Assembly: GCA_903869345.1 (NCBI GenBank)
Contig: CAIPYM010000019.1
Span: forward strand, 1 to 36,785
DNA from: an uncultured Pseudomonadota bacterium
Lineage (GTDB): Bacteria; Pseudomonadota; Alphaproteobacteria; UBA9219
Direction of reading: 5' to 3'
Length of the DNA stretch: 36,785 nucleotides
The notes beneath the pieces are model-generated. The model was not told where the DNA came from. It made no database searches and saw only the letters and a list, made by a program, of their open reading frames with translations. A program made the translations under genes and the position numbers. The stretch's first letter is position 1. Each line of letters opens with the position of its first letter. This document shows positions 6,077 to 30,336 of this stretch, in pieces.

Positions 6077-6565
6077 GTGGTCGAGTCCGTTTTTTCCCTC
6101 GGCGCAACGCCGCCTTCTTCGCCCGACGAGGACGACGGGTCGTCGCTGTCATGGCAGGAACAGGACGCGCAATTGCGGACCCTTTGGGCGCGGGCGGACA
6201 TGACGCCCGAGGACATCGGACAGGCGCTGGGGCGGACGGTCTCCGCCGTGCGGACTCGGGCGGTGCGGCTGGGGCTTCCTCGCCGCGCCCGGCCGGGGCG
6301 TCCACCCGGTGTGTCGTCACGTCGGGAACGGGCCGCGAATACAGCCCCTCGGGAAAGGCCCCCCGCTTCCACGTCCCCTCATACGGGGGCTTCGGGGGTT
6401 ACACCCTCGGCCGTTCCGCGCCTCACGACTCGCACATGCCTGATGTGCTTGCGGACGTTTTTTTCGCAAGGGCGACACAACCGAATTTGTCCTTCGTGCA
6501 AAGGGTCCGGTGAATACCTCACCGCGTGCGGTTTGCCCGACATCGCTTTTAGGGGGTCGGTCTAA
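6077..6565 (+). CDS. GcrA-like cell-cycle regulator with zinc ribbon
   Basis: This 162-aa protein has an N-terminal GcrA-type helix-turn-helix domain (about residues 25-66: LSWQEQDAQLRTLW, then TPEDIGQALGRTVSAVRTRAVRLGL). It continues with a basic, Pro/Arg-rich linker and a C-terminal four-cysteine ribbon (C121, C124, C138, C141). GcrA of Caulobacter binds sigma70-RNA polymerase at promoters with methylated GANTC (known). The GTG start at 6077 is chosen for its good site GGGAGG at 6063-6068. Its stop overlaps the next ATG (TAATG), so it is translationally coupled to the first DotI-like gene and is probably a local regulator of the island. The start of GcrA proper (MSWTDER) is replaced by a longer N-terminus, so this is a paralog rather than the master regulator. 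Confidence 0.75.
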   Translation: MVESVFSLGATPPSSPDEDDGSSLSWQEQDAQLRTLWARADMTPEDIGQALGRTVSAVRTRAVRLGLPRRARPGRPPGVSSRRERAANTAPRERPPASTSPHTGASGVTPSAVPRLTTRTCLMCLRTFFSQGRHNRICPSCKGSGEYLTACGLPDIAFRGSV

Positions 6566-7200
6566 TGGCTCTTAAGGATGCAATCGTCACGATCCTCAGC
6601 CGCAATGCCTTCTACCGTGATGGCTACAGGCTGCTCTTGCGAATCAGTGTGATTCAAGGGCTTGTCATCGTGCTGCTCGGCGCGTCCATCGTCGCCATGC
6701 TTCTTTCCATGGAAACGCGCTACGTCTATTTCGCAACGACCTCGGACGGGCGCATCATCAGCATTGTTCCACTTGACGATCCGTTTAAAACGCGCGCACA
6801 GGTGATCACGTGGGCCGCGCAGACCGCACAGGCCGTCTTGCGCCTCGGGTACCATGATTTTCGTCCCCGGTTGCAGGATTCGGCGGTGAATTTTACGCCC
6901 ACGGGCTGGGAAAGTTTCACCAAAGCCATGCGTGAGGCTCGCATTCTGGAAACCATTGAGGCTCGCAAGCTGGTGACCACCCTTTCGGTGGAAGCAGCGC
7001 CCGAGATCAAGACCGCCTTCATCAAAAACGGCGTGTACACGTGGTACCTGCAATTCCCCATTCAGATTCGTTTTGAGGGCGATCAAGCCCCGTCACCCAT
7101 TCGCGCTCTGCTGGTTCTGCAGGTCGTGCGTGTGTCCACGTTGCAGAATCCTAACGGCATTGCGATTGAGCAGTGGATTGCTCGTGAGCCCAAAACATGA
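6565..7200 (+). CDS. dotI: Type IVB secretion protein DotI/IcmL (IncI TraM-like)
   Basis: DotI is an inner-membrane component of the Dot/Icm and IncI secretion machines. The 211-aa protein has a short cytosolic N-terminus, one membrane helix at about residues 22-47, and a periplasmic domain. That domain carries family features such as an early ATTSDGRIISIVPLD strand pair, an AQVITWAAQTAQAVL helix and the TPTGWESFTKAM segment. It overlaps the upstream GcrA-like gene by one base of the stop codon and overlaps the next gene by four (ATGA), so the three are one translational unit. Residue pattern and neighbours dotD-dotC-dotB-icmT make the assignment firm. Confidence 0.88.
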   Translation: MALKDAIVTILSRNAFYRDGYRLLLRISVIQGLVIVLLGASIVAMLLSMETRYVYFATTSDGRIISIVPLDDPFKTRAQVITWAAQTAQAVLRLGYHDFRPRLQDSAVNFTPTGWESFTKAMREARILETIEARKLVTTLSVEAAPEIKTAFIKNGVYTWYLQFPIQIRFEGDQAPSPIRALLVLQVVRVSTLQNPNGIAIEQWIAREPKT

Positions 7201-8039
7201 TGCCGTCCGAGCCTCCTTCTCCCGCCGATCCATCGGCGGGTAGGGCCGCAGAGGTGGCCTTGGAGGAGAACAAGGCGGACCCCCTGTCCGCATCGACGAA
7301 AGACTCAGAAGACAAGACAGAATCGCCCGATCCGGCCCTCGATTCCCCCGCTGCTCCTTCAGCGTTTGTCAGGATTCGCCGCACGGTGGTGAGCGTGCTG
7401 AGGGGGGCGCTGAGTCCTTCGGATTTTTCCGAAAAAATCCTGCCCGATGATCGGGACGCCGCGAGGCGGGCGTTTGTTTTTCGCCGTCTGATCATTTGGC
7501 AGGCCGTTTTTATTGGTATCTTGTTGGCCGTGATTGTGTTCGGCGCACCCTTTTTCCGGCCCATCTTGGTGTACCGCGCGTTGACAACCGACAACCGGGT
7601 CATTCCGCTTGTTGCGTTGGACGGGTCGAATCAAACAGACATGGCGATTTTGGGGTGGGCCGCCACCAGCGTGACGGAAGTTCTAACCGTGGGGTTTGGC
7701 GATTTTGATCGCCAAATGTTGCACCAGAAATCCCGCTTTACACCGGACGGATGGGGCAGTTTTCGCGACGCGGTGGTCCAGCAAAAGTTCCGCCAAACGT
7801 TCAAGGATTTTCAGTTGGTGCTGACGACCGTGCCCTCCGATATGCCGCTCATCACGTCCAAGGGCGAAGATCCCGAGACTCAAACGTACCGATGGAACGT
7901 CGAAGTTCCTGTTGTGATGACGTACGTGACCAACAACAACGTTTCGCGGCAGGCACGGGGGCTTGTGAAATTGGTGATCGTGCGGATTCCCCCCCACGAG
8001 AACGTTGAAGGAATCGCCATTCAAAAATGGTCCATGTAA
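7197..8039 (+). CDS. Second DotI/IcmL-like protein with cytosolic extension
   Basis: This is a paralog of the preceding protein. It shares the VYRALTTDNRVIPLVALD, AILGWAATSVTEVL and TPDGWGSFRDAV segments of the DotI periplasmic domain. It is 280 aa because of an extra N-terminal part of about 90 residues, rich in Ser, Pro, Asp and Glu up to residue 55 and probably disordered. One membrane helix lies at about 98-119. In Legionella the partner DotJ is a short DotI homolog lacking the periplasmic domain; here both copies keep it. The four-base ATGA overlap with the first copy fits a heteromeric complex (inference). Confidence 0.82.
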   Translation: MMPSEPPSPADPSAGRAAEVALEENKADPLSASTKDSEDKTESPDPALDSPAAPSAFVRIRRTVVSVLRGALSPSDFSEKILPDDRDAARRAFVFRRLIIWQAVFIGILLAVIVFGAPFFRPILVYRALTTDNRVIPLVALDGSNQTDMAILGWAATSVTEVLTVGFGDFDRQMLHQKSRFTPDGWGSFRDAVVQQKFRQTFKDFQLVLTTVPSDMPLITSKGEDPETQTYRWNVEVPVVMTYVTNNNVSRQARGLVKLVIVRIPPHENVEGIAIQKWSM

Positions 8040-8150
8040 GGCAAGGCCGTCCCGAGTTCATCAAGAGGGTTGTGCCTTGCGGAGGGGAGGATTATACCTG
8101 CTCTCCGTTAGGTCAGGATCAGGCACGTCACACACTCGCACGAGGGATCG

Positions 8151-8645
8151 ATGGTGAGGAGGCAACGGACAGGAGATCTTGCGCTGATCGCGGGCCTTTG
8201 GGTCCTGGCGGGGTGCGCACCCTCGCAGCTTGTCCCCGTCGCGACGGAGGCCGATCTTGTGGGCACCCGAATCGCTCAGGCGTCGGAAAAAGCCGCAAAC
8301 GCGCTGGATTCGCTGGCCGCCATTGAACAGACACGGACCCCGTTGCCGGAGATCGCAGCGGATTACGCAAGCGCGCCTCCCAATTTGCTTCAACCCATCA
8401 CGCTGAACTGGACGGGTCCTGTTGAACAGGTGGCCCAGATGTTGGCAACCCGCGCTGGGTATACGTTCAACGTTTTGGGCGGGCCGTTGCCCGTGCCGGT
8501 GACCGTGACCTTGAACGTTTACGACCGTCCCTTGATTCAGCTGCTGCGGGACATTGGCTTGCAAGTCGGGCAGCGGGCGAGTTTGACGGTGGATGGATCT
8601 TCCGGGGTTGTTGAGTTGCGCTATGCCCCTGTTGACAAGATCTAA
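8151..8645 (+). CDS. dotD: Type IVB secretion outer-membrane lipoprotein DotD (TraH-like)
   Basis: DotD is a small lipoprotein of the outer-membrane core that, with DotC, places DotH in the outer membrane (known in Legionella). The 164-aa protein has a signal sequence ending in lipobox LAGC (Cys22). It carries the DotD features PITLNWTGPVEQVAQMLA and YTFNVLGGPLPVPVTV, a secretin N0-like fold, followed by VYDRPLIQLLRDIGLQVG. The ATG at 8151 has GAGGG just upstream; GTG at 8154 is an alternative. A 111-bp gap separates it from the DotI-like pair. Its 3' end overlaps dotC. Confidence 0.9.
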   Translation: MVRRQRTGDLALIAGLWVLAGCAPSQLVPVATEADLVGTRIAQASEKAANALDSLAAIEQTRTPLPEIAADYASAPPNLLQPITLNWTGPVEQVAQMLATRAGYTFNVLGGPLPVPVTVTLNVYDRPLIQLLRDIGLQVGQRASLTVDGSSGVVELRYAPVDKI

Positions 8646-9504
8646 GCCCTGCCGACGGGCGTTGGCGTTTCTCGCGCTGGCTGCGGTCCTTGGCGCAGGG
8701 GGGGCGATGGCCTCCTCGCCGACGTGGGCCGCCGACGAATCACCGCAGGCCACGGTCTCACCGCCACCACCGGAGCTGCAAAGTTTGCAAGATCGCGAGC
8801 GTCCGGCGGGCGAATCGGCGCGGGCCGACGTCATGGGGCTCCAGATTCGCAACGACGCCTTGCGCGAGGCCGCGTTGTCGTACGGTGCCCGCGGGGGTTT
8901 GGCGCACCGGACGTTTGAAATTCAAAGGCGGCTTGCTGAGTACGACACGAGTCTTGCCAAAATTTATGATTTTGGGCGACTTCTCTTGCCCGCCTCGTCA
9001 GGGCTTCTCATTGAACCGCCTACTGTTTCCGAAGCCCAGCGAGCCGTTCTGGTGGGCGGCGGGGGGCAGGATGCTGCCGTCGCGGACCGTGTCTACCGTA
9101 TCAACCAAAACGCGCGCATCGTGACAGCCCCACGGTCTTGGCACCTTTACCTGGAAAGGGATTGGGGGGCCGTGGATCCTCCCCCGTCCTTGCTTTTGCC
9201 GCGTACAGGCGAAGAGCGTCAACAGTGGCGGAAGTGGGTCCAGGAGGGCTGGCTTGCAGGCCTTCAGCAAGCGGAAGAGACGTTTGAGGCCGACCTTGAT
9301 CGGCTGACGAACGACCTCACCGGCATGGTGCGGTACCGTGAACTGTTGGCACAACGCATGATCTCGGCGCCTTACGCGCTTCAGCAAGACCGTGGTGTGA
9401 CGGGAGGCGGACCTGAAATGCGTGTAGGCGACCGGGGCCTGACCATCACGGGCCCCTCGGCCCTTATCCCCCGGAGCGGGTTGTGGAAAACAATTTCCCG
9501 CTGA
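8623..9504 (+). CDS. dotC: Type IVB secretion protein DotC (TraI-like)
   Basis: DotC partners DotD in the outer-membrane part of the secretion channel. The family pattern is clear along the whole length: LREAALSYGARGGLAHR, a VADRVYRINQNARIVTAPRSW segment, LYLERDW, then WVQEGWLAGLQQAEETF, RYRELLAQRMIS and EMRVGDRGLTIT. I prefer ATG 8623, which gives a normal signal peptide (basic RSKPCRR, then LAFLALAAVLGAGGAMA); an ATG at 8593 in frame would place ten residues ahead of it. Unlike Legionella DotC, no lipobox cysteine follows the hydrophobic stretch, so the protein is probably cut by signal peptidase I. It overlaps dotD by 23 bp and dotB by 22 bp. Confidence 0.88.
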   Translation: MPLLTRSKPCRRALAFLALAAVLGAGGAMASSPTWAADESPQATVSPPPPELQSLQDRERPAGESARADVMGLQIRNDALREAALSYGARGGLAHRTFEIQRRLAEYDTSLAKIYDFGRLLLPASSGLLIEPPTVSEAQRAVLVGGGGQDAAVADRVYRINQNARIVTAPRSWHLYLERDWGAVDPPPSLLLPRTGEERQQWRKWVQEGWLAGLQQAEETFEADLDRLTNDLTGMVRYRELLAQRMISAPYALQQDRGVTGGGPEMRVGDRGLTITGPSALIPRSGLWKTISR

Positions 9505-10715
9505 ACAGCCCGACGGACGAGGAGATTGGCCTTTGGCCCGATGAGCCCTTGCGCGTTCAAGAGCTCCATGTCGATCCCTTGTTGCTCTGGTGTGCGCGTA
9601 AACGTGCGTCAGACATCACCTTGCAGACCGACAGGCCCGCGTACGTGGAAGTGGACGGCATCTTGCATCCCGTGATGGTCCGGTCGCTTGATTCGGCGGA
9701 CATGACCAATATTCTCAACCGTATTTACGGTCCCGATGCACTGGCAAAACTGGCATCAAGCCGTGACTTGGATTTGTCCTACGAAGTGCGTCCCGAACGA
9801 AATGTGCGATTCCGCTTTCGTGTGAACATCACGGCTATTCTCAGCAAGGGGCGTGATTCGGTTCAGATCACCCTGCGCAGCCTGCCCAATTTACCGCCGA
9901 CGTTGCGTGACCTCGGGGTTGAAGAAAAAGTCATCGCGAATTGGTCGCCCCCGCAGGGGCTTATTCTCGTCACGGGTCCCACGGGCAGCGGCAAGACGAC
10001 GCTTCTTGCGGCGGGCTGCCGGATGCTCATTGAACGGCCCGAGGGCTGCGGCAAGCTGCTCACCTACGAAGCCCCCATTGAGTACGTGTACGACGGCATC
10101 ACCGGTGAACGTTCCTTGGTGGCCCAAACCGAAATTCCGCGCCATCTCCCGACGTTTGCGGCAGGGGTGCGCAACGCCCTCCGCCGCAAGCCGAACATCA
10201 TTCTGGTGGGCGAAGCCCGCGACCGCGAGACCGTCTCGGCGGCCATTGAAGCCGGGCAGACAGGTCACCTTGTTTATTCCACCGTGCACACGGTAGGCGT
10301 TGCGGCGACGGTGCGTCGTATCGTGAGTGTGTTCGAACCCAGCGAGCGAACCGAGCGCGCTTACGCGCTCATGGAAACGCTGCGCATGGTTGTCACGCAA
10401 ACGCTGGTGCCCAAAATCGGGGGGGGGCGAATCGGTTTGCGTGAGTACCTGGTGTTCGATGAAACCGTGCGCGAGCAATTGCTTGATCTACCCGTTGAGC
10501 AATGGACAGCAGCGGCGCAAAAATTTCTTCTCCGGTATGGACGGACGATGGAGCAATCGGCCAGCGCCGCCTTTAAAGATGGGCTCATCAACCGCCGGAT
10601 CTACCTCTTGCTGACCAAGGGATTGTCCGTGGACAGTTTCGACGACTCGCCCTTCGCAACCCTACCGCAGGCAATCAGCGAAGATGAAACGCGGGCCTTG
10701 GAAGAGGATACCTAG
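9483..10715 (+). CDS. dotB: Type IVB secretion ATPase DotB (TraJ-like)
   Basis: DotB is the VirB11/PilT-like hexameric ATPase that powers or gates substrate transfer from the cytosolic side. The 410-aa protein has an N-terminal domain, then Walker A GPTGSGKTT at residues 165-173. An Asp-box region follows (LLTYEAPIEYVYD), then Walker B NIILVGEARD and a His box ending in GHLVYSTVHTVG. The GTG start at 9483 lies inside dotC and gives the family N-terminus, with CARKRASDITLQTDRPAYVEV. A run of nine G at 10419-10427 codes for three glycines (313-315); slippage there would cut off the last quarter of the protein. icmT begins three bases after the stop. Confidence 0.92.
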   Translation: MENNFPLNSPTDEEIGLWPDEPLRVQELHVDPLLLWCARKRASDITLQTDRPAYVEVDGILHPVMVRSLDSADMTNILNRIYGPDALAKLASSRDLDLSYEVRPERNVRFRFRVNITAILSKGRDSVQITLRSLPNLPPTLRDLGVEEKVIANWSPPQGLILVTGPTGSGKTTLLAAGCRMLIERPEGCGKLLTYEAPIEYVYDGITGERSLVAQTEIPRHLPTFAAGVRNALRRKPNIILVGEARDRETVSAAIEAGQTGHLVYSTVHTVGVAATVRRIVSVFEPSERTERAYALMETLRMVVTQTLVPKIGGGRIGLREYLVFDETVREQLLDLPVEQWTAAAQKFLLRYGRTMEQSASAAFKDGLINRRIYLLLTKGLSVDSFDDSPFATLPQAISEDETRALEEDT

Positions 10716-10718
10716 CCT

Positions 10719-10994
10719 ATGGACTCGGCGGATCTCCATTGGCGTAATACACAAAAGCCCGTTCGATTCTTCTTTGTGGATGCACGCGCGTTCTTCCCGC
10801 TCTTTATTTTTCTTGTTCATGCCCGATCCTGGACATTTGGCTTGACCATTCTGACACTTTTTGTGTTTTGGTTGATGGAGCGTCGGGGCTTGAGTTTTGA
10901 TTCGGCGCTGCGGGCGCTCCGCGCGTGGCTTGTGGGCGTCAAGCGTCCGGGGGTGAGTCGTCGGGTGCGGCGGCGTTGGGTGGACTACGGTTGA
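10719..10994 (+). CDS. icmT: Type IVB secretion protein IcmT (TraK-like)
   Basis: IcmT is a small inner-membrane protein of the Dot/Icm machine. This 91-aa protein matches the family well: an N-terminal HWRNTQKPVRFFFVDARAF, a membrane hairpin of two helices (about residues 23-53) around HARSWTF, then a basic tail with RALRAWLVG and RRRWVDYG. In IncI plasmids and many T4BSS loci the order DotD-DotC-DotB-IcmT is conserved, exactly as here. It is the last gene of the secretion block; a 226-bp gap separates it from the pilus genes. Confidence 0.9.
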   Translation: MDSADLHWRNTQKPVRFFFVDARAFFPLFIFLVHARSWTFGLTILTLFVFWLMERRGLSFDSALRALRAWLVGVKRPGVSRRVRRRWVDYG

Positions 10995-11019
10995 TCGACA
11001 TGTGAAAATGGCTTGGGAG

Positions 11020-11220
11020 AGCCCTTCAAAGGCCCTTCTGAAGAGCTTGTAAGGGCTTGCCGTAGTCGTTGTCTGGGTATATGGAGGAGGGCAGATTTCG
11101 GCGTCGGCAGACGCGAGTCGGTGCAGGTCGAGAAGGGGCCTGTTTTTAGGGGTATCTTTAGGGTGTTCGTCGAGATTCCTTAACTCGGAGCCCCGACCTC
11201 TCCAGAGGAGTTGAGAGACG
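11020..11220 (+). promoter_or_regulatory. Probable pilus-operon leader region
   Basis: This gap between icmT and the pilus genes has three visible features. The first is paired AGCCCTT (11020-11026) and AAGGGCT (11051-11057) arms, with a second GCCCTT copy at 11032 that could pair alternatively. The second is a weak promoter-like pair TTGCCG (11057) and TATATG (11078) with a short 15-bp spacer. The third is a strong ribosome site AGAGGAG just before the ATG at 11221. Two GANTC sites lie at 11115 and 11174, close to chance expectation. It is the only sizeable gap between the secretion and pilus genes, so an internal promoter here is plausible but not proven. Confidence 0.3.
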
Positions 11221-12234
11221 ATGTATGAATCATCTCCGGTTTTTAGGCGGCAGTTGTTCGTGGGACTCGGTCTTTGTGGACTTGCGATGATTCTGACGGC
11301 GGGACCGACGTTGGCGGACTTTCAGTGGGTTCCTCCACGGATGGCTGCCCCTTCCTCGGCCCGCCCATCGCCGGTTGTTCCTACGTCTCCCGTAAGTGTG
11401 ACGGAATCGGTTCCTTCCAAATCAACCCTTGCGTTCCGTTCCGAGCCTCTTCCCGTTGGAGACACAGCTCAAGAGCCGATCATGACAATTCAGCCGACGC
11501 GCCCCACCGTCAGGCCGTCTGAGACGAATTCAGAGCCAGCTCTGCAGGGGTTTGCCAACCGGGTTCCTCTGGCCGTTGCCCTTCGGCAGGTTTTGCCCGC
11601 CGAATACGCTTTCTCGGTTGATCCGGCTGTGAATCTGGAGACCCTTGTCTCCTGGAAGGGCGGGAAAACATGGCGATCGACCCTGCAAACCCTGTTGTCG
11701 GGCGCGGATCTGACCTTTCATGAGGATGGGAAGATTGTCGTGATTGAGCGGGGGGTGTCTTCGGCTCGTGCTTCGTCGACAGAGAGCCAAGCGCCCCAGG
11801 TGCTTGCACTGCCTTCGTCGGTGGGGGGAAGTCCATCGATTGAGACGTGGCCTTTGCCTTTGGACTCGGCGCGGAGGGGCGGCAAGACAGTGGCGGAGTT
11901 TCCACGGCAACGACAAGGGGGATCTCTGGCGGACAATCCGTCGCCGCTTCCGGGGGCCGATTCATGGACCGCCACCCGAGGGGACACTTTGCGTCAAGTT
12001 GTGGGGGAATGGGCGGCGCGCGCTGGGGTTGAAGTCAGTTGGCAATCGGAATACGATTACCCGCTTCATGCCTCCATTGCGGTGATGGGAACGTTTGAAG
12101 ACGCGGTGCGAACGATTCTCTCTGGTTTTGAAGGCGCACATCCCCAACCGATTGCAACGCTTCATGCCCGCGAAGGGCAATCAGGACAATCCGTTCTTGT
12201 GGTGTCGACTCGCGGCAACGACTACGGCTCCTGA
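11221..12234 (+). CDS. PilL/TcpQ-like type IVb pilus protein
   Basis: This is a 337-aa exported protein. A signal peptide (hydrophobic core about residues 13-30, ending TLA) is followed by a Ser/Pro-rich linker. A first domain (about 105-180) resembles a secretin/TonB short N-terminal domain (VPLAVALRQVLPAEYAFSVD). A second low-complexity linker leads to a C-terminal TcpQ-type domain from about 245, with GDTLRQVVGEWAARAGVEVSW, GTFEDAVRTIL and VLVVSTRG. TcpQ domains occur in TcpQ and in PilL of IncI plasmids, where they help the secretin. It opens the pilus operon, 23 bp before pilN. The exact symbol is uncertain. Confidence 0.75.
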   Translation: MYESSPVFRRQLFVGLGLCGLAMILTAGPTLADFQWVPPRMAAPSSARPSPVVPTSPVSVTESVPSKSTLAFRSEPLPVGDTAQEPIMTIQPTRPTVRPSETNSEPALQGFANRVPLAVALRQVLPAEYAFSVDPAVNLETLVSWKGGKTWRSTLQTLLSGADLTFHEDGKIVVIERGVSSARASSTESQAPQVLALPSSVGGSPSIETWPLPLDSARRGGKTVAEFPRQRQGGSLADNPSPLPGADSWTATRGDTLRQVVGEWAARAGVEVSWQSEYDYPLHASIAVMGTFEDAVRTILSGFEGAHPQPIATLHAREGQSGQSVLVVSTRGNDYGS

Positions 12235-12257
12235 CGCAGAAAAGGGGTAAACTCGAT

Positions 12258-13844
12258 ATGACAAAGCGACCTCTGGTGCTGGCGATGTTCCTTGTGGCCC
12301 TTGTCGGCTGCAACAACGAGAAAGTGCGCACGCTGATTGATGAACGTACGCAAGAAGCTGTGCGGGGCGTCGAAAAAGCTCAAAACCCGGCGCCACCAAA
12401 GAGTTACAATCCGTTGACGATTTCCAATAAAGTGTGGACGGGGGAACTCGCGCTGCGCCTTCGGCGTGGCTTGCCGTTGCCGGCGAAATTTGAGGGCGAT
12501 CGCGGCATCACGCTGGTCGCCGACCGTGCGTTGCCTGCGCGGGAGATTCTGGCCTCTGTTACAGGGCAGACGGGCATTCCCCTCCGACTGGGGGACGGAT
12601 CGGACGGCGACATTGATCGCGAAATACCGATTGCCTACGAAGGGGGCCTTTCGGGGCTTCTGGATTTGCTGGTCGCTCACCTGGGGGGCAACTGGCGCTA
12701 CGACGGGTCGGTGATTACGATCTCAAAGTTTGAGACTCGCGTGTTTACGGTGGAAGCGTTGCCCGGCACCCAGTCCGTCAAGGACGGGGTTGATGAGGAT
12801 CAAGGCAGCCAACAAGGAAGCAGTGGGGGAAGCGGCGGGAGCAGCAGCAGTTCGACCAACAGCCTCAAGCAAAAAACAGAGATGACCGCTGAATTCAAGG
12901 TGTGGGACGAGATTCAGCAGACCGTTGCCGCCATGCTCAACGGCGTCGGGACCGTCATCATTGCACCATCCAGTGGCACGTTGACCGTGACCACGACGCC
13001 GGAAACCATGCGTACAGTTGCCGCGTTTCTGGACGAGGAAAACAAACGCCTCTCACGCCAGATTGCGATCAACGTTGAAGTTTACAAGGTTGAACTCTCG
13101 GAGGGCACAAACTTCAATGTTACGCTTTCCGAGGTTCTGGATCGTCTTGGCGGAACCCGTATGGGCGGGAGTTATGGGAGCGCGTCGACGATGGGACAAA
13201 CGACAGGCTCAGCAAGCCTGAGCGTCAGCATTTTTAACAAAGCATCGCCCGATTCTGTGTTGAAGGCGTTGTCGACCTTGGGCGACACGGTTCAGGTCTC
13301 CCAGTTCCCCATGACAACCCTCAACAACCGTCCCGTGTCCCGGCGTGTTGGGCGGGATAGGTCCTACGTGGCCTCGGTGACAAGCACGGCATCCACGAAT
13401 CTTGTGAGCGCATCGTCAATTTCCGTAACCCCAGGACTCGTTCGTGAGGGGTTTTCGCTGCAGTTAACACCGCGTCTTTTGGACGATGGGCGAATCATCT
13501 TGCAGTATTCCTTGAATATCATTGATGCTGCGGAGTTCAGAACGTTTGGGGGAGGGACCACGGACGCGAACGGGACACCGATTGGGTCCAACCAGCCTGC
13601 CGTCGAATTGCCGGTCATGGCAACACGTCTGTTTGTCCAGCAATCCATGCTCAAAAGCGGAACAACCCTGTTTCTCTCGGGCATTGACGATGAACTCGTA
13701 ACGCAAAGTGCCGAAGGGGTCGGTCATCCCTTTAACTTCCTCCTTGGGGGAGGCTCCAAGAACGCGAAGACGCATTCGATGCTCTTCATCGCGATTACAC
13801 CCCAGGTTTTGGATGTACCGCGTGGCGAAGGGGGGGGGGTCTAG
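12258..13844 (+). CDS. pilN: Type IVb pilus secretin lipoprotein PilN
   Basis: This is the outer-membrane secretin ring through which the pilus passes. The 528-aa protein starts with a lipoprotein signal, lipobox LVGC with Cys18. An N-terminal N0/STN-like domain (about 95-165) is followed by a Ser/Gly-rich stretch (about 178-200). An N1-like domain with VAAMLNGVGTVIIAPSSGTL follows, then a secretin C-terminal domain with VQVSQFPMTTLNNRPVSRRV, FSLQLTPRLLDDGRI and VELPVMATRLFVQQ. This is the BfpB/PilN branch. The last codons contain ten consecutive G (13830-13839), and the stop touches the pilO start. Co-location with pilO, pilP and the ATPase makes the call firm. Confidence 0.9.
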   Translation: MTKRPLVLAMFLVALVGCNNEKVRTLIDERTQEAVRGVEKAQNPAPPKSYNPLTISNKVWTGELALRLRRGLPLPAKFEGDRGITLVADRALPAREILASVTGQTGIPLRLGDGSDGDIDREIPIAYEGGLSGLLDLLVAHLGGNWRYDGSVITISKFETRVFTVEALPGTQSVKDGVDEDQGSQQGSSGGSGGSSSSSTNSLKQKTEMTAEFKVWDEIQQTVAAMLNGVGTVIIAPSSGTLTVTTTPETMRTVAAFLDEENKRLSRQIAINVEVYKVELSEGTNFNVTLSEVLDRLGGTRMGGSYGSASTMGQTTGSASLSVSIFNKASPDSVLKALSTLGDTVQVSQFPMTTLNNRPVSRRVGRDRSYVASVTSTASTNLVSASSISVTPGLVREGFSLQLTPRLLDDGRIILQYSLNIIDAAEFRTFGGGTTDANGTPIGSNQPAVELPVMATRLFVQQSMLKSGTTLFLSGIDDELVTQSAEGVGHPFNFLLGGGSKNAKTHSMLFIAITPQVLDVPRGEGGGV

Positions 13845-15107
13845 ATGCCCTCGGGCGTTGTCACCCTTGGTCGGCATACCTACGCCTCAGGTCTTTACTG
13901 GGAGAACAGTCCGAGCGGCTTTGTCTCCCAGGCGGCTAAGGAAGCGGCGCGGCAGCCGGGGCACCGTGCCTCCCTTTATGCTATACGGCCAGGCAACACC
14001 CGAACGGGGCGTGTGCCTCAGTTTGCCCTGAGTCAAGATACGCCGGACCACCACATTGGTATGCCGTCTTTGGCAGGGTGTTTGGCGAATGAGCAACCGG
14101 GCTCGTGGGTCGGTGCCTTCCAGTTCCGGGAGGGAGTCGCGGTTGTGATTGTGCGCGACGACCTTGTCGTGCCGGATGGTGATATTTTCTTCGAAAGCGC
14201 AAGCGATGCGCGCGACCGTCTTTTGCAAGAAATCGCATTGGGGGGACGGCTCAAGATCTACGCTCCGGAGAGTTGGGGCGTTCAAGGCTCGGATTCGATC
14301 CCCATCAGTTTATTGCTACGGGACCGCAGCGATGTCCGGTTGCGTCCGGTTGAAATTCCGCGCAGTTGGTTCATTGCCCTGGGTGTCAGCGCTGTAGCGC
14401 TTGCGGCGATTCTCATGATTTCGTGGATTTTGCAGCGCATGTCGGCCGCCGAGGAAGCCGAACGTCGTGCGCAGATGCTGGAGCTTGAACGCGCACGTCG
14501 TGCGGCCCAGCAAATGATTCCGCAATTGGTTCAAAAGCCGCCGGAGTACCCGCCGCCTCAACGGGTGTGGGAACAAAAACCCCTGCCCCTGGAATTTGTC
14601 GAATCTTGTCAAAACACCCTGTCGAAGGTGCCGCTTGCGACAGCGGCTTGGCGGATGACCAGTATCGGGTGCGTGGGATCTTCGCTCACCGTCCGTTGGG
14701 GACGAAGCGGTGGTTTTAGCCTTCCTCCACCGGGGGCTTTTGTGAGCGAGACGGGCAGTGTCGCTACGCTTGTCCTGCCTCTTCAAGAGAGCAAGCCGCG
14801 AGGGAAAGAGGACCTGTGGTCGCCGACAGCTCTCACACGGCGTATCCTTGTTCAAAATTGGCCCGGCACCATTGGTCGGGCGTTGGATGATCCGAAGCCT
14901 TTGCCACCGCCGGACTACAAGGGCCCTTGGGACCCTCCGGCTCCGCCGTGGATGAAGCGCTCGTTTTCTTTTTCTTTTGCAGCCTTGCCTTGGGTCCTGC
15001 CGACGTTGTTTGAGGGACTTCCTGGGCTGATTGTCGAATCGTTAGTCGCGGATGGGCCTTCGGGACCGTGGACTGTGGAAGGGGTGATCTATGAAAACCG
15101 TTCTTAA
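13845..15107 (+). CDS. pilO: Type IVb pilin accessory protein PilO
   Basis: PilO of IncI-type pili is an inner-membrane assembly protein linking the cytosolic motor to the periplasmic parts. The 420-aa protein has a cytosolic N-terminal half with a GxxWxxAFQFREGVAVVIVRDD strand pattern and ALGGRLKIYAPESWG. One membrane helix follows at about 175-195 (WFIALGVSAVALAAILMISW). Next come a charged coiled-coil segment (about 200-222) and a periplasmic half of alternating hydrophobic strands. It begins immediately after the pilN stop codon and overlaps pilP by 17 bp. Sequence conservation in this family is low, so gene order contributes much of the evidence. Confidence 0.75.
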   Translation: MPSGVVTLGRHTYASGLYWENSPSGFVSQAAKEAARQPGHRASLYAIRPGNTRTGRVPQFALSQDTPDHHIGMPSLAGCLANEQPGSWVGAFQFREGVAVVIVRDDLVVPDGDIFFESASDARDRLLQEIALGGRLKIYAPESWGVQGSDSIPISLLLRDRSDVRLRPVEIPRSWFIALGVSAVALAAILMISWILQRMSAAEEAERRAQMLELERARRAAQQMIPQLVQKPPEYPPPQRVWEQKPLPLEFVESCQNTLSKVPLATAAWRMTSIGCVGSSLTVRWGRSGGFSLPPPGAFVSETGSVATLVLPLQESKPRGKEDLWSPTALTRRILVQNWPGTIGRALDDPKPLPPPDYKGPWDPPAPPWMKRSFSFSFAALPWVLPTLFEGLPGLIVESLVADGPSGPWTVEGVIYENRS

Positions 15108-15927
15108 AGTTGGGATGGGAACCTTGGCCTTCGCTGCGGTTCTGATCCTGCCAAGCGTTTCCCTGCATGCGCAGGACCTTGCGTCAACGGCCGTGGCTGC
15201 GGAAGCCGCAGCCGTTTTGTCAGCCGTTCCTGCTCAGCCGAGCCCCCCGGCCAACAACAGTCAGGCTACAGTTCCTGCTGGGCCTCTGCCCGGAGAGGCG
15301 TCTTCGGCGGAGATCAAGATGGGGCCTTCTGGGGGAGGCGGGGCGCTTTCTCTGAACCCAGAGGGTTCTGACAAAGCGGAAGATAACCTGTTGTTGGAAG
15401 GGAACACGGATTCGCAGCAGATCCCCGGCTCTGTTCGGAACGTTCTCAAGGATCTTCGAACGTCAACCGAGGGCCTCACGGTTCAGGATCTGAACAAAGC
15501 GCGTGAAGCGTCGTCGCGCCTGGATGCGCTCATTGATATTGAAAAGCGTCTGAACGATTTGGCCACGTTGCGTCAGGAACGTCTGGAGAAGGCGGGGGCC
15601 GCGCTTGGAGCGGCGATTCCTCTTTCGGCGTTGTCCCCTTCTGCGGGGGGAGTGGTCTGTCCGTCAAAACCAACGCCCCCCCCTCCTCCCCCTCCTCCAA
15701 GTTTTAATCCTCAGGTGGAGATGGTGGTAGGTGCACGTGGGCGTTACACGGCGGTGATACGGGTGTTGGAGGATAAAACCGTCCGCGTTCATGAAGGCGA
15801 TATGTTGCCGAACGATCGCCGCGTGCTGTCCATTACTCCGCGGGCTGTGGTGATCTCGAAAGCAGATGGTGGAAGCGAGACCCTCTTGCTGACGGGCGCA
15901 AGCGTTCTTATCGCGGGCAAACATTAA
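15091..15927 (+). CDS. pilP: Type IVb pilus biogenesis protein PilP
   Basis: This is a periplasmic 278-aa protein with a signal peptide (cleavage after SLHAQ or nearby). An Ala/Pro/Ser-rich low-complexity region follows, then a helical segment (about 128-172: LNKAREASSRLDALIDIEKRL). A run of eight prolines at about 190-198 precedes a C-terminal beta domain (from about 205) with VVGARGRYTAVI, VHEGDMLPNDRRVLSI and VVISKADGG. That C-terminal pattern (a short repeat of G-x-A-I-x-x-G followed by R-V-x-x-I) is typical of PilP proteins, which bridge the inner-membrane platform and the secretin. It overlaps pilO and is followed after 76 bp by the ATPase gene. Confidence 0.78.
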   Translation: MKTVLKVGMGTLAFAAVLILPSVSLHAQDLASTAVAAEAAAVLSAVPAQPSPPANNSQATVPAGPLPGEASSAEIKMGPSGGGGALSLNPEGSDKAEDNLLLEGNTDSQQIPGSVRNVLKDLRTSTEGLTVQDLNKAREASSRLDALIDIEKRLNDLATLRQERLEKAGAALGAAIPLSALSPSAGGVVCPSKPTPPPPPPPPSFNPQVEMVVGARGRYTAVIRVLEDKTVRVHEGDMLPNDRRVLSITPRAVVISKADGGSETLLLTGASVLIAGKH

Positions 15928-16003
15928 GGTCTGGCCCCCTTAGTCTCACCCCGCCGCCGCACGACAAAGGTGTGGTTCCGGAGGAAAGGCTGGGCTTGGC
16001 CTA

Positions 16004-17941
16004 ATGCCGAGGGCAAGGGGTTTACATGTGATGAAAGGTCTTGAGGCATCCATCCGGCGCATGCGGGCGCTTTTGGGGTATGCTCCCTCGAAAACACCTT
16101 CTGCACGCCCTGGACGGTCCGAAAAGCCTTTGGGTGTTTCTTCGCCCCCCCCCGTCCGCAAGACACAACGGGTGGAAGTTCCGCTGCCGCCCTTACCGAT
16201 TCGTGAGGACAAGGCCCGCACGGGTTTGGAAAATCCCCCGGTACGCCCCCAAGAAGAGACATCCCTTGGGTCGGACGCTAACGTGGATTTCAAACAGGGG
16301 ATTGTTCTGACAGCCGAGGGGGGCCCCCTCAAGGTTCCTGAGGAATCTCGAACGCTCTGTGCCTTGTTTGATACGGGGCTCTGGGTTGTCAGCTCGGCTC
16401 ACCGAAACTCGCCTTTGATCACGTCGGTTGCTCAGGCCGCAAAGAGGCAGGGCTACCGCGTCGACCCCCCTCGTTACGTCACCCCCACCCAGATTCGCCA
16501 GATTTACACCCATGTGAGCCAACACGAACAGTCCGTGAAGATCGATAACAATGCAACGCGTCGCGCGATTGTCGATATCTTGGAACGCGCAACGGCTGTG
16601 GGAGCCAATGACATTCATATGGAGTCGTCAGACGGCAGGACCCGCATTGATTTTCGGATGGAAGGTTCCCTCCGTCCCCAGGGGACTCTAACGCAACGCG
16701 AAGGGGAACAGATTCTCTCGGCGATTTACGCGCATTCTGTTGGACAATCGGGGGCGACCGCCAACTGGCTCGAACCTCAGGCTGCCATGTTGAGCGCAAC
16801 GGCCTCGGGGCCGGATTCGTTGATGCTGCCCGAGGGAATCATTGGGGTGCGGTGCCAGTGGGTCCCGATCGCGGACGGCGGACGTTACCTGGACATGCGG
16901 CTCCAGTACGACTCGGCGCATCTTTTTGGTGAAAATTTTGTGATGGCCGACGTGGATTCGCTCGGCTTTTCGCAAGAGCAGTTACGAGTCGTTCAGGGGT
17001 TGCGTCAAGTTCCTGGCGGGATGCGGGTCTTCGCAGGCCCCGTGAATCAGGGGAAAACAACCACGTTGCGGGTGACGCTGAATCGGCGCATGGCCGAGAC
17101 CGAGATGCAACTGAACTGTTTGATGATTGAAGACCCCCCCGAAGGGGGGGTGCTGGGGACACGCCAGATTGGTGTTTCGTCGTCCGTGAAAGATGAGCAA
17201 CGCGAGCGCACATTTGTCGAAATCATGCGGTGCACGTTACGTCTGGATCCGGACATCGTGATGTTGGGGGAAGTGCGTGACCTGCAAACGGCACGATTCG
17301 CGTTTCGTCTGGCGTTGACGGGGCGTCAAGTGTACACGACGTTGCACGTCTATTCAGCGCTTGCGATTCCTCAACGCCTTCGGGACATTGGGATCGAGCC
17401 CTATTTGGTCTATGATCCTCTTTTGTTGCGGGGGATGTTCTGCCAACGCCTTGTGCGTACCCTGTGCCCGTCGTGCCGGATCCCTCTGCGGCAGGCTCCT
17501 GCGGAATTAGGTCCCCTTTACAAAGATCTGATACGACGAACACGGGCGGGACTGGCCGTCATGGACGCTGCGCGTGCGGCCACGTTTGATTCGGCGGCAC
17601 CGTACGAGGGACTCACGGAACCCGATCTTCAAAATGTCTATGTTGCCAACCCCGAGGGCTGTTCGGCGTGTTACAAGGGGCGCTCGGGGAGGACCATCTG
17701 CGCGGAGGTCATCGAGGTGGATCAGCAGCTGATGGACTTTCTTCAAGAAAACAGGCAGCCGGAGGCGCGACGCTACTGGTTATCTCCGCAAGGACTGAAG
17801 GGGGTGACGATGCTGTGGCATGCTTTTGAAAAAATGCGCCGTGGAGAAATTTGCCCCGCCGATGTAGAGTTTGAAATAGGTCGCCTTGTGACGGATAAAG
17901 AATTGAGCGAAGTTGAGCAACGCTTGGGGGGGACGGTATGA
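16004..17941 (+). CDS. pilQ: Type IVb pilus assembly ATPase PilQ (GspE/PulE family)
   Basis: This is the motor that drives pilin addition from the cytosol. The 645-aa protein has a Pro-rich N-terminus, an N2-like domain with RATAVGANDIHMESSDGRTRIDFRM, and Walker A GPVNQGKTT (unusual Val-Asn-Gln inside the loop but with GKT intact). The acidic box is IEDPPE, Walker B is DIVMLGEVRD, and the His box is GRQVYTTLHVYSA. A zinc site of CPSC and CSAC follows, as in GspE. The start is uncertain: ATG 16004 has GAGGAAAGG 14 bp upstream, while GTG 16028 and ATG 16031 follow AAGGGG closely. A run of nine C at 16145-16153 lies early in the gene. It overlaps pilR by four bases. Confidence 0.9.
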   Translation: MPRARGLHVMKGLEASIRRMRALLGYAPSKTPSARPGRSEKPLGVSSPPPVRKTQRVEVPLPPLPIREDKARTGLENPPVRPQEETSLGSDANVDFKQGIVLTAEGGPLKVPEESRTLCALFDTGLWVVSSAHRNSPLITSVAQAAKRQGYRVDPPRYVTPTQIRQIYTHVSQHEQSVKIDNNATRRAIVDILERATAVGANDIHMESSDGRTRIDFRMEGSLRPQGTLTQREGEQILSAIYAHSVGQSGATANWLEPQAAMLSATASGPDSLMLPEGIIGVRCQWVPIADGGRYLDMRLQYDSAHLFGENFVMADVDSLGFSQEQLRVVQGLRQVPGGMRVFAGPVNQGKTTTLRVTLNRRMAETEMQLNCLMIEDPPEGGVLGTRQIGVSSSVKDEQRERTFVEIMRCTLRLDPDIVMLGEVRDLQTARFAFRLALTGRQVYTTLHVYSALAIPQRLRDIGIEPYLVYDPLLLRGMFCQRLVRTLCPSCRIPLRQAPAELGPLYKDLIRRTRAGLAVMDAARAATFDSAAPYEGLTEPDLQNVYVANPEGCSACYKGRSGRTICAEVIEVDQQLMDFLQENRQPEARRYWLSPQGLKGVTMLWHAFEKMRRGEICPADVEFEIGRLVTDKELSEVEQRLGGTV

Positions 17942-19035
17942 GCCTGAAGGTTCTTGATCTCGAGAGGGCGTGGCTTCGGTGGCAGTTTCGGACGAGCGCC
18001 CGCACACGTTTCCGTGTGTACCGGAAGCTAGAAGGCATGCTGCGGATGAACGAGGCGTTGTCACGGTGCTTGGATCGTCTTTACATGAACGCCTCTGAGA
18101 TGGGGAAGTACCCTAAACGTCCGGCGGCGGCCGCGTTGCGGGAATGGTTTTTGGCGGACCGGCAGGGTCTTCCTCTGGCCGAATCGGTCATCGGCTGGAT
18201 TCCGTCCTCCGAGCTGTACATGATCCGCGCGGGTGAAGAATCGGGCACGCTGGCGAAGGCGTTGGCCTCCATTCAGGCCATGGGCGCCAAGGCGCGTCAG
18301 ATGCGAGAAGCCGTGATGTACGCCGTGGCTTACCCGACGTTTATGATCATTCTTTTGGGATTTGTTCTTTGGATTTTTGGGGTCCAGCTGATTCAAAACA
18401 TGCGCAAAACAGCACCGCCGCAGGTGGTCGATGCCATGGGGAGCGTCCCCGCCGTTTCTGATTTTATCAGTGAATGGGGACTTTGGTGCGTGGCGGGCGT
18501 TGTTGTTTTTCTGTTGATCATTACGGCTACACTGCCAACCTGGCGCGGGACGTGGCGCATACGGCTGGATCGTTTTCCGCCCTGGTCTTGGTACCGTATT
18601 CTTCAAGGAAGCGGTTTTCTGCTGGGGATCGCAGCGCTTTTAGGGGCGCAAGTGCCGCTCAAGCGGGCGCTGGAGATTCTTGAAAGCAACGCAACTCCCT
18701 GGCTGAAGGAGCGCCTAAGCGCGGCGCGCCAGCAGGTGCTGCGCGGGAGAAACCTCGGCGAGGCGCTGCGCAGCACGGGGTACGATTTTCCGGACCCAGG
18801 AGTCGCTGTTGACTTGGAAATTTTATCCGAACGGGCCGATGTGGGAAGCGTGATTGAGGAAATCACCGAAGATTGGATTCGCGATCAAATTGATCTTTTG
18901 AGAGCCCAAGCAGCGATTGCACGCAACGTCGGTCTTGTCTTGGTGGGGGGAACCATCGCATGGACGATGCAGTCCGTGTTCAACGTTGTGACGGTTGTTG
19001 CGCGTGGAGGTGCCGGTGGTGCTGGAGGTTTTTGA
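17938..19035 (+). CDS. pilR: Type IVb pilus inner-membrane platform protein PilR (GspF family)
   Basis: This is the inner-membrane platform on which the ATPase acts. The 365-aa protein has two GspF-type cytosolic domains, each ahead of membrane helices. The first carries SELYMIRAGEESGTLAKALASI and the second IAALLGAQVPLKRALEIL and AVDLEILSERADVGSVIEEI. Membrane helices are seen at about 135-157 (FMIILLGFVLWIFGVQLIQ), 178-200 and 325-350. It ends in a Gly/Ala-rich tail. The ATGA overlap with pilQ indicates coupled translation. The length is usual for the R64 PilR type. Confidence 0.9.
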   Translation: MSLKVLDLERAWLRWQFRTSARTRFRVYRKLEGMLRMNEALSRCLDRLYMNASEMGKYPKRPAAAALREWFLADRQGLPLAESVIGWIPSSELYMIRAGEESGTLAKALASIQAMGAKARQMREAVMYAVAYPTFMIILLGFVLWIFGVQLIQNMRKTAPPQVVDAMGSVPAVSDFISEWGLWCVAGVVVFLLIITATLPTWRGTWRIRLDRFPPWSWYRILQGSGFLLGIAALLGAQVPLKRALEILESNATPWLKERLSAARQQVLRGRNLGEALRSTGYDFPDPGVAVDLEILSERADVGSVIEEITEDWIRDQIDLLRAQAAIARNVGLVLVGGTIAWTMQSVFNVVTVVARGGAGGAGGF

Positions 19036-19078
19036 CAAAGGGGATGTAGGGGGGCAACGGCGTCGAGGGCTCTCGCAC

Positions 19079-19720
19079 GTGAACCGGTTACGCCGAGGGT
19101 TTACGCTTGCAGAGGTCGCCATCTTGCTGGGAATCGTGGCCTTTGTTTTTGGGGCCGTTTGGATCGCAAGTGACATGGTTTGGCGCAGCTACACACGTGA
19201 CAAGACCTTGCAGCAAATTTTTGCGATCGTGAACAATGTGCGGGAGGTTTATGCTCCCATTGGGCAAGGGACTTTGCCCAACAACGCAGGGACGGCTGAT
19301 GTGACGGCCATTCTTGATGGACAACGGCTTGTTCCCATCGAAATGCGGGTGGATCGCTCCAATGCGGCGGGTAACCTGCGCCATGCCTTAGGGGGGCCCG
19401 TGACCCTTTTGGCGGAAAACACGCCCTCAGGGATCGCGCAAGGCGTTTTGCGCGTGACGTTGGGGGGGCTCAAGGCAGGCAATTGTGTGTATCTTCTGAT
19501 GACCCTGCCCGCAACGTTTCCTGAAGTTGGGATGACGCGGTTGGCGGCCAACAGTACACATTCCGTTGCGATTGATCCGCATAATGTCACACTTCCCTTC
19601 ACGTTTCCCTCCGGGGGGGGAACTGCATCTTCGTTCCCGTTAGCGACAGCAACGACGTGGTGCGATGCAGCCAACGGTGTGAACAACCAGGTGGAATTCG
19701 ATTTTCTTGTCCGTAACTAG
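19079..19720 (+). CDS. Type IVb prepilin 1 (PilS-like)
   Basis: This is a pilin precursor with a short basic leader VNRLRRG cut before Phe (GFTLAEV), giving the invariant Glu5 of the mature protein. A hydrophobic helix follows (AILLGIVAFVFGAVWIA). The mature part is about 206 aa with two cysteines (in AGNCVYLL and TTWCDAANG) that would form the C-terminal disulfide loop. I chose GTG 19079 because GAGGG lies nine bases ahead; starts further upstream overlap pilR and would lengthen the leader to about 35 residues, as in some type IVb pilins. A run of eight G at 19613-19620 is in the gene. No prepilin peptidase gene is present nearby. Confidence 0.8.
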   Translation: MNRLRRGFTLAEVAILLGIVAFVFGAVWIASDMVWRSYTRDKTLQQIFAIVNNVREVYAPIGQGTLPNNAGTADVTAILDGQRLVPIEMRVDRSNAAGNLRHALGGPVTLLAENTPSGIAQGVLRVTLGGLKAGNCVYLLMTLPATFPEVGMTRLAANSTHSVAIDPHNVTLPFTFPSGGGTASSFPLATATTWCDAANGVNNQVEFDFLVRN

Positions 19721-19731
19721 AGGTCTCGGCT

Positions 19732-20358
19732 GTGCGAATCAAAAGGCACCGAAAACACCCCCCCGCCCGCGGCATGACATTGGCCGAAGTCGCGATCGTC
19801 ATGGGGCTCATCGGGCTGCTGCTTGGGGCGCTTTGGTCCTTTGTTCCCCTGGTGTACAGCCGAGCGCAGCAAGAGCAAATGTTTGAGCAGATTCTGTTAA
19901 CAGTTAACAAGATGCGGGGTTTTTACCTCGGGCAGGCCAGGATTCCCTCGGGGCTCACAACAGATACAGCGATTCGCCACGAAATCGTGCCCCCGGAGAT
20001 GGTGCGTGATAAGACCGCGACGACGCTCATTGCAGATCATACGTGGAGCTCACCAGAAACAAGCGGAACGTACACAAACGGAACCTACATTGTGGACGAC
20101 GATCCAGGGGGGACGTCCTCGGGACAGCTTTTCCGTCTTCAGCTGTTGGATCTTCCTTTGAGGATCTGCATGCCCTTGGTGCCGCGTCTGACAGGGATTG
20201 AGGGGCCTTCGGGTATCACGGCGTTGACCATTAACGGAGTCGCCGTTCCGACCCCCACCAAGGTAACGGTTGGGGCGGCTTCAGCGGCCTGTCAAGGCGG
20301 AACCATTCCTCGCACGGACAGGGCAAACGTCATTTTCACGTACCGACTCCGCGATTGA
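19732..20358 (+). CDS. Type IVb prepilin 2
   Basis: This second pilin precursor is 208 aa. The 14-residue basic leader ends RG and is cut before Met (GMTLAEV), the Met-start form common in type IVb pilins such as TcpA. Glu5 is kept, followed by a hydrophobic helix (AIVMGLIGLLLGALWSFV). Two cysteines (LRICMPLV and SAACQGG) fit the usual disulfide. It is related to prepilin 1 in the first 30 mature residues but differs beyond. The GTG start at 19732 follows AGAGG, 11 bp after the previous stop. One of the pair may be the major subunit and the other a minor or tip pilin; the sequence does not say which. It is the last gene of the island and converges on pdhA. Confidence 0.8.
   Translation: MRIKRHRKHPPARGMTLAEVAIVMGLIGLLLGALWSFVPLVYSRAQQEQMFEQILLTVNKMRGFYLGQARIPSGLTTDTAIRHEIVPPEMVRDKTATTLIADHTWSSPETSGTYTNGTYIVDDDPGGTSSGQLFRLQLLDLPLRICMPLVPRLTGIEGPSGITALTINGVAVPTPTKVTVGAASAACQGGTIPRTDRANVIFTYRLRD

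Positions 20359-30261: not shown

Positions 30262-30336
<75 letters not shown>

What the first reader, a model, noticed from the sequence alone, without database searches (positions are those of the whole stretch)
6077..20358. Chromosomal type IVB secretion core joined to a type IVb pilus operon
Seen: on one strand, DotI, a second DotI-like protein, DotD, DotC, DotB and IcmT, then PilL/TcpQ-like, PilN, PilO, PilP, PilQ, PilR and two prepilins, mostly with overlaps. Known: this pairing occurs on IncI plasmids such as R64, where the pilus aids mating. Inference: here it is between gltX and pdhA with no relaxase or plasmid genes, so it may be a domesticated machine for DNA uptake, killing or host contact. 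It may be a system not previously studied in this group.
Basis: partly seen in the sequence, partly recalled or inferred. Interest (0 to 1): 0.75.

Follow-up and report, generated by a model that had tools for sequence, protein, structure and literature searches.

The report
Predator-lineage injection machine with pilus
This chromosome of a Micavibrio-like bacterium (a group that includes bacteria living off other bacteria) carries a complete conjugation-type injection machine whose parts sit beside genes for a gripping pilus; the same pair is inherited across almost the whole order with no sign of a DNA-transfer enzyme in this genome, so it is a strong, testable candidate for how these cells latch on to and inject their targets.

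Summary
Window 6565-20358 (+) encodes DotI, a second DotI, DotD, DotC, DotB, IcmT, then PilL, PilN, PilO, PilP, PilQ, PilR and two prepilins, all intact; a conserved HTH gene (6077-6565) leads the cluster. The window is a whole contig of a 1.74-Mb, 99% complete genome of the Micavibrio order. The rest of the type IVB secretion system (T4BSS) is elsewhere in that genome, scattered among housekeeping genes: DotA, DotF, DotG, DotH, DotM, DotO and two DotL. It has a prepilin peptidase and no PF03432 relaxase. So it is no remnant and shows no sign of a plasmid or ICE. In relatives one ~40-kb locus holds nearly everything. DotC occurs in 27 of 33 genomes of the order, PilN in 28; in 17 they lie 3.8-5.4 kb apart. 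DotB, DotO and PilQ trees keep the order together, apart from IncI plasmids. Best reading: a vertically inherited, relaxase-less, conjugation-type T4BSS plus type IVb pilus that grips neighbouring cells and injects protein, most likely into bacterial prey. Machine and pilus are shown by homology; substrate and target are inferred. A 2022 paper already counted such T4BSS in seven marine Micavibrionales; the pilus linkage and order-wide inheritance I did not find described.

The parts
6077..6565 (+). GcrA-like helix-turn-helix protein, probable regulator of the cluster
   Evidence: PF07750 1.9e-5, just under cut-off; 47% identical over 134 aa to the gene that precedes DotI in G018; same gene before DotI in G001, G005, G009, G017, G018
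6565..7200 (+). DotI/IcmL/TraM, inner-membrane component
   Evidence: PF11393 4.1e-43, NF038072 5.5e-46
7197..8039 (+). second, full-length DotI-like protein
   Evidence: PF11393 5.8e-30; a second DotI also in G001, G005, G009, G017 and G018
8151..8645 (+). DotD/TraH lipoprotein (lipobox LAGC)
   Evidence: PF16816 1.6e-29; N-terminus read
8593..9504 (+). DotC/TraI outer-membrane component; signal peptide but no lipobox
   Evidence: PF16932 2.9e-73; solved DotC 3.5e-38; lipobox scan
9483..10715 (+). DotB/TraJ ATPase, Walker A GPTGSGKT
   Evidence: TIGR02524 1.1e-121; solved DotB 6geb 1.3e-108
10719..10994 (+). IcmT/TraK
   Evidence: NF038220 87 bits against a cut-off of 40
11221..12234 (+). PilL-like protein with STN and TcpQ domains
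   Evidence: PF10671 5.5e-15, PF07660 3.9e-5
12258..13844 (+). PilN, type IVb pilus secretin lipoprotein (LVGC)
   Evidence: TIGR02520 1.3e-77; solved BfpB 4e-52
13845..15107 (+). PilO2 pilus accessory protein
   Evidence: PF06864 6.5e-20
15091..15927 (+). PilP pilus biogenesis protein
   Evidence: TIGR03021 1.5e-9, above cut-off
16004..17941 (+). PilQ pilus assembly ATPase; Walker A GPVNQGKT, a signature of this lineage
   Evidence: PF00437 7.4e-51; solved BfpD 3.6e-68; motif comparison
17938..19035 (+). PilR, inner-membrane platform protein
   Evidence: PF00482 1.6e-22
18995..19720 (+). prepilin 1 (likely start GTG 19079; cleavage LRRG/FTLAEV)
   Evidence: sequence; clusters with the pilins of relatives
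19732..20358 (+). prepilin 2 (cleavage PARG/MTLAEV)
   Evidence: PF07963 5.1e-4; clusters with the pilins of relatives

Best explanation
The window holds the DotI-DotD-DotC-DotB-IcmT part of a complete, chromosomal, conjugation-type T4BSS, joined to a type IVb 'thin pilus' operon. Mechanism. (1) PilQ and PilR assemble a pilus of the two prepilins, cut by the peptidase on contig C8, through the PilN secretin, and hold a neighbouring cell (inferred from R64, Tcp and Bfp). (2) DotC, DotD and DotH form the outer-membrane core, DotF and DotG span the envelope, DotI, DotA and IcmT sit in the inner membrane, DotB and DotO supply energy, and the DotL-DotM coupling complex picks substrates (homology to Dot/Icm and Tra). 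(3) With no relaxase of the R64 kind in the genome, the cargo is most likely protein injected into the gripped cell rather than the cell's own DNA (inferred). (4) Given the Micavibrio kinship and the precedent of a T4BSS that kills bacteria, the target is most likely another bacterium, prey or rival (inferred). Shown: parts, completeness, order-wide conservation, linkage, clade-wise inheritance. Not shown: assembly, cargo, target. My confidence in the machine is about 0.95, in contact-dependent protein delivery about 0.65, and in bacterial prey as the target about 0.45.
For: Gene identities. Rest of the T4BSS in the same genome: DotH, DotG and DotF on C14, DotM C76, DotO C8, DotL on C22 and C1, DotA C76, prepilin peptidase C8. 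No PF03432 relaxase in the genome. Contiguous locus in G005, G009, G017 and G018. DotC 27/33, PilN 28/33, DotA 29/33 of the order, DotM 28/32, DotH 22/26; DotC and PilN 3.8-5.4 kb apart in 17 genomes. Clade-wise inheritance: PilQ 100/100 with G133, DotO 97/99, DotB 90/96. Intact Walker A motifs in DotB, DotL, DotO and PilQ. Housekeeping neighbours. Precedent: a T4BSS of Pseudomonas putida kills bacteria by contact (PMC9519443).
Against: No effector, substrate or target identified. Only one relaxase family was searched. Relaxases occur in other genomes of the order, so mobilisation in trans is possible there. M. aeruginosavorus ARL-13, the cultured predator, was reported to have no type IV secretion system (PMC3189940); its genome was not available here. 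G021, listed as 100% complete, has no DotC, DotH, DotM, DotO, DotL or close PilN. Whether this MAG is a predator is unknown.
Confidence: 0.62

Rival explanations
1. Conjugation or mobilisation system: the chromosomal T4BSS and pilus transfer DNA, perhaps mobilising small plasmids whose relaxases come and go in the order, as IncI/R64 does.
For: Same core genes and partly the same gene order as IncI (DotI-DotH-DotG-DotF-TraQ, and DotD-DotC-DotB-IcmT). Relaxases in about half of the order's genomes. Same linkage on the Acidovorax plasmid pACP3.1 and plasmid-borne T4BSS with relaxases in alphaproteobacteria.
Against: No PF03432 relaxase in this genome. Dot genes dispersed among housekeeping genes, with no plasmid or integrase genes seen in the window. 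Clade-wise inheritance.
Confidence: 0.15
2. Protein injection into a eukaryotic host (amoeba, ciliate, flagellate), as Dot/Icm of Legionella and Coxiella does; the bacterium would be a protist associate.
For: DotB is closer to Legionella DotB than to IncI TraJ (48% against 30% identity). Other small-genome alphaproteobacterial lineages carry it. The 2022 paper on a choanoflagellate symbiont reads such T4SS as host-association traits (PMC9418006).
Against: Gene order is conjugation-like, with a thin-pilus operon. No eukaryotic-like effectors were searched for. The order's cultured members prey on bacteria (PMC3189940).
Confidence: 0.18
3. Inert remnant of an old plasmid or ICE.
For: The locus is broken up over several contigs in this genome; G021 and G022 lack parts.
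Against: Every frame intact, Walker A motifs kept, full set present, conserved across three families.
Confidence: 0.02

Closest known systems
IncI/R64 tra-trb-pil system (MPF_I conjugation); compared with pKMi025_2, NZ_CP091653.1
   Same: DotB, DotC, DotD, DotF, DotG, DotH, DotI, DotO, DotA and IcmT counterparts, TraQ-like gene, PilL, PilN, PilO2, PilP, PilQ, PilR and pilins; DotI-DotH-DotG-DotF-TraQ order
   Different: Chromosomal and dispersed here; no NikB-type (PF03432) relaxase; no PilM, PilT, PilU or PilV in the pilus operon; two DotI; DotC without lipobox; PilQ Walker A GPVNQGKT; only 23-32% identity where tblastn matched
Dot/Icm T4BSS of Legionella and Coxiella
   Same: DotB (48% identical to that of L. 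adelaidensis; 6geb); DotC matches solved Dot/Icm DotC; no relaxase of the IncI kind
   Different: Short DotG (493 aa in G018, 580-aa frame here); thin-pilus operon attached; IcmS/IcmW chaperones and effectors not looked for
kib T4BSS of Pseudomonas putida IsoF (PMC9519443)
   Different: kib has a shown effector-immunity pair; none is known here; its genes were not compared here
Acidovorax carolinensis plasmid pACP3.1 locus (NZ_CP021363.1)
   Same: DotC-DotB-IcmT followed by TcpQ-PilN-PilO2-PilP-PilQ-PilR-pilin, almost the window's order
   Different: Plasmid with ParM and a MOBP relaxase; 22-43% identity for DotB, DotC, PilN and PilQ
pT4SSi noted in seven marine Micavibrionales (PMC9418006)
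   Same: Very probably the same T4BSS, in the same order, scored as relaxase-less
   Different: Counted only; the text passages found mention no pilus linkage, gene layout or inheritance in Micavibrionales

Membership tests
Type IVB secretion system (Dot/Icm-Tra, MPF_I) | DotB, DotC, DotD, DotI and IcmT | tested here: met
Type IVB secretion system (Dot/Icm-Tra, MPF_I) | DotG, DotH, DotO, DotL-DotM coupling complex and DotA in the same genome | tested here: met
   DotH, DotG C14; DotM and DotA C76; DotO C8; DotL C22 and C1
Type IVB secretion system (Dot/Icm-Tra, MPF_I) | Intact ATPase Walker A motifs | tested here: met
   DotB GPTGSGKT, DotO AQPGAGKS, DotL GTTGSGKT twice
Type IVb pilus (R64 thin pilus / Tcp / Bfp) | PilN secretin lipoprotein, PilO2, PilP, PilQ, PilR | tested here: met
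Type IVb pilus (R64 thin pilus / Tcp / Bfp) | Prepilins with cleavage site G/(F or M)TLAE and a prepilin peptidase in the genome | tested here: met
   PF01478 on C8, 5.7e-10
IncI conjugative system | MOBP relaxase (NikB type, PF03432) | tested here: not met
   no match in G000; other relaxase families not searched
IncI conjugative system | Carried on a plasmid or ICE | tested here: not met
   window is a 36.8-kb contig of housekeeping genes around the cluster; other dot genes lie beside ispG, tyrS, recG, glmS, ftsZ (some names from reading the sequence)
IncI conjugative system | PilV tip adhesin with shufflon, PilU peptidase in the pil operon | tested here: not met
   only two prepilins (208 and up to 241 aa) follow PilR, then pdhA
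Dot/Icm effector-translocating system | Translocated effectors and IcmS/IcmW chaperones | not tested
   needs effector assays; no chaperone search was made
Micavibrio order (GTDB Micavibrionales) | Placement of the genome | tested here: met
   G009, same family as G000, has the contig length of DYDA01000004.1 'Micavibrio sp. IMS_BF'; order name by inference

The most novel reading that the evidence does not exclude
In Micavibrionales a vertically inherited, relaxase-less conjugation machine plus type IVb pilus is the attack apparatus: the pilus grips prey and the T4BSS injects the proteins that let an epibiotic predator drain it, a predation system unlike those described for Bdellovibrio.
Probability: 0.35. 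Interest if true: 0.87.

Novelty: new variant of a known kind. Interest (0 to 1): 0.57.

Why it matters
How epibiotic predators breach and drain prey without entering it is an open question, and the cultured Micavibrio genome paper found here concluded that there was no type IV secretion system (PMC3189940). A complete T4BSS joined to a gripping pilus, conserved across almost the order, gives a concrete set of genes to delete and image. It also shows that IncI-like pairing of injection machine and pilus is a chromosomal trait in several alphaproteobacterial lineages and not just a plasmid trait.

Tried and rejected
IncI origin: DotB, DotO and PilQ trees do not place the order with IncI, but the IncI rows are long branches, so this is not proof of the converse. 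Dead remnant: rejected by intact frames and full gene set. Loss of the DotO Walker A: a first strict pattern missed it; the alignment shows AQPGxGKS, canonical. VirB5/TrbJ-like tip adhesins: relatives carry families of secreted, Cys-rich ~500-aa proteins between DotL and DotD (A1; G018's copy is a remote relative, 91% probability, and has a weak TrbJ match), but the model is poor (pLDDT 60.5) and Foldseek gave no hit under E 0.05; CagL appears at Z 4.0 among unrelated helical proteins, so no claim. Window 34816-36540 as a member of that family: 7% probability, model pLDDT 36, not supported. Promoter and terminator scan: no excess over shuffles. Base composition: cluster 58.9% GC against 60.4% for the window, uninformative. 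M. aeruginosavorus ARL-13 could not be checked: no held genome of the order is a single 2.5-Mb contig.
Full report
What is there. The window is the whole contig C19 (36,785 bases) of a 1.74-Mb genome in 76 contigs, 99.3% complete. Between gltX (4493-5914, +) and pdhA (20433-21482, -) lies one + strand cluster with gaps mostly of a few bases or overlaps. A GcrA-like helix-turn-helix gene comes first, then DotI, a second full-length DotI, DotD, DotC, DotB and IcmT, then after 226 bases PilL (STN and TcpQ domains), PilN, PilO2, PilP, PilQ, PilR and two prepilins. Solved relatives agree: DotB (6geb, 1e-108), DotC (4e-38), BfpB for PilN (4e-52) and BfpD for PilQ (4e-68). The prepilins carry type IVb cleavage sites, LRRG/FTLAEV and PARG/MTLAEV.

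The rest of the machine. They do, in the same genome: DotH with DotG and a DotF-like gene on C14, DotM and DotA (140 bits over the joined frame, cut-off 100) on C76, DotO at the start of C8, and two DotL on C22 and C1. A prepilin peptidase is on C8. Their neighbours are housekeeping genes: ispG beside DotO and tyrS beside DotL by profile; recG, ftsZ, glmS, pgk and tolB nearby by reading the sequences (from my own knowledge of these families). No relaxase of family PF03432, the NikB type, is found in this genome; other relaxase families were not searched.

Relatives. In G005, G009, G017 and G018 nearly everything lies in one stretch of about 35-50 kb: HTH gene, DotI, DotI, DotH, DotG, DotF, TraQ-like genes, DotO, DotM, DotL, a transglycosylase and a thioredoxin-like gene, DotD, DotC, DotB, IcmT, PilL to PilR and pilins; in G009 DotO-DotM-DotL precede the HTH gene. 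The window genome has this layout broken into pieces.

Prevalence and linkage. In the 33 held genomes of the order DotC is in 27, a close PilN (E at most 2.5e-35) in 28 and DotA in 29; DotM is in 28 of 32 searched and DotH in 22 of 26. Of 25 genomes with both DotC and PilN, 19 have them on one contig and 17 within 3.8-5.4 kb. G021 has no DotC, DotH, DotM, DotO, DotL or close PilN though listed as 100% complete; its sister G017 carries them in one 40-kb stretch, so a single deletion or an assembly gap would explain it. Outside the order 9 further genomes among the 385 drawn from the class have DotC. G133 and G249 have the pilus operon next to DotC, DotB and IcmT; three genomes of one family have only a PilL-like gene there in the stretches read.

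Descent. Trees of DotB, DotO and PilQ keep the order together: PilQ 100/100 with G133, DotO 97/99, DotB 90/96; groups such as G001-G009 and G017-G019-G023 recur as the kinship predicts. IncI, M. tundrae p2 and other plasmid rows fall outside, but several are long branches, so only 'not close to IncI' is safe. All PilQ of the lineage share the Walker A GPVNQGKT against GPTGSGKS or similar elsewhere, and DotC has a signal peptide without lipobox where IncI TraI has LTGC. Walker A motifs of DotB, DotL and DotO are canonical.

How it most likely works. By homology the T4BSS core spans the envelope and DotL-DotM feed it; the pilus extends through its own secretin and holds a neighbour, as the R64 thin pilus does in liquid mating (established knowledge). 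Without a relaxase of that kind in the genome the cargo is more likely protein than the cell's own DNA. The inference that the target is bacterial rests on three things: the order's cultured members feed on bacteria, a relaxase-less system is kept by descent, and a T4BSS is known to kill bacteria by contact (PMC9519443). None of this is a test. A protist target and plasmid mobilisation in trans stay open.

Known or new. A 2022 paper counted relaxase-less T4SS of this type in seven marine Micavibrionales (PMC9418006), so presence is prior art. The 2011 genome of M. aeruginosavorus ARL-13 reported no type IV secretion system (PMC3189940); I could not check that genome. The pilus linkage is known from IncI plasmids and is also on an Acidovorax plasmid. 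What I did not find described, in an open-access library only, is the order-wide chromosomal pairing, its inheritance by descent and its break-up in this genome. I therefore call it a new variant of a known kind.

Noticed in passing
window 16004-17941 and PilQ of G001, G004, G005, G009, G013, G017, G018, G133: Walker A of the pilus ATPase PilQ is invariably GPVNQGKT in this lineage, against GPTGSGKS and the like in all other PilQ compared.
   Followed up: partly
window 34816-36540 (-): Orphan secreted 574-aa protein with several cysteines; no Pfam hit and no relative in the fetched loci. It resembles in outline the secreted proteins near DotL in relatives, but homology is not supported.
   Followed up: partly
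L051:3038-9113, L039:7299-11777, L053:16460-19683: Tandem paralogous secreted ~450-540-aa proteins (alignment A1), two to four copies per genome and only 22-46% identical to the first row, between the DotL region and DotD; candidate surface or tip proteins of the machine.
   Followed up: partly
G000 C22 (L169:873-3326) and C1 (L170:6041-8059): Two intact DotL coupling proteins in the window's genome, each 63-64% identical to G018 DotL; the other genomes tested show one.
   Followed up: no
G021:C3:24706-31124: Two DotA-like genes remain in a genome that lacks the rest of the T4BSS and the close PilN; the same pair lies apart from the main locus in G017.
   Followed up: no
L045:7577-9886: A GT4 glycosyltransferase and a Wzy/O-antigen-ligase-type protein sit inside the T4BSS locus of G018, and similar genes in G005 and G009; possibly pilin glycosylation.
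   Followed up: no
window 30262-30336: tRNA-Gly (gcc) on the same contig; no integrase was noticed near it.
   Followed up: no
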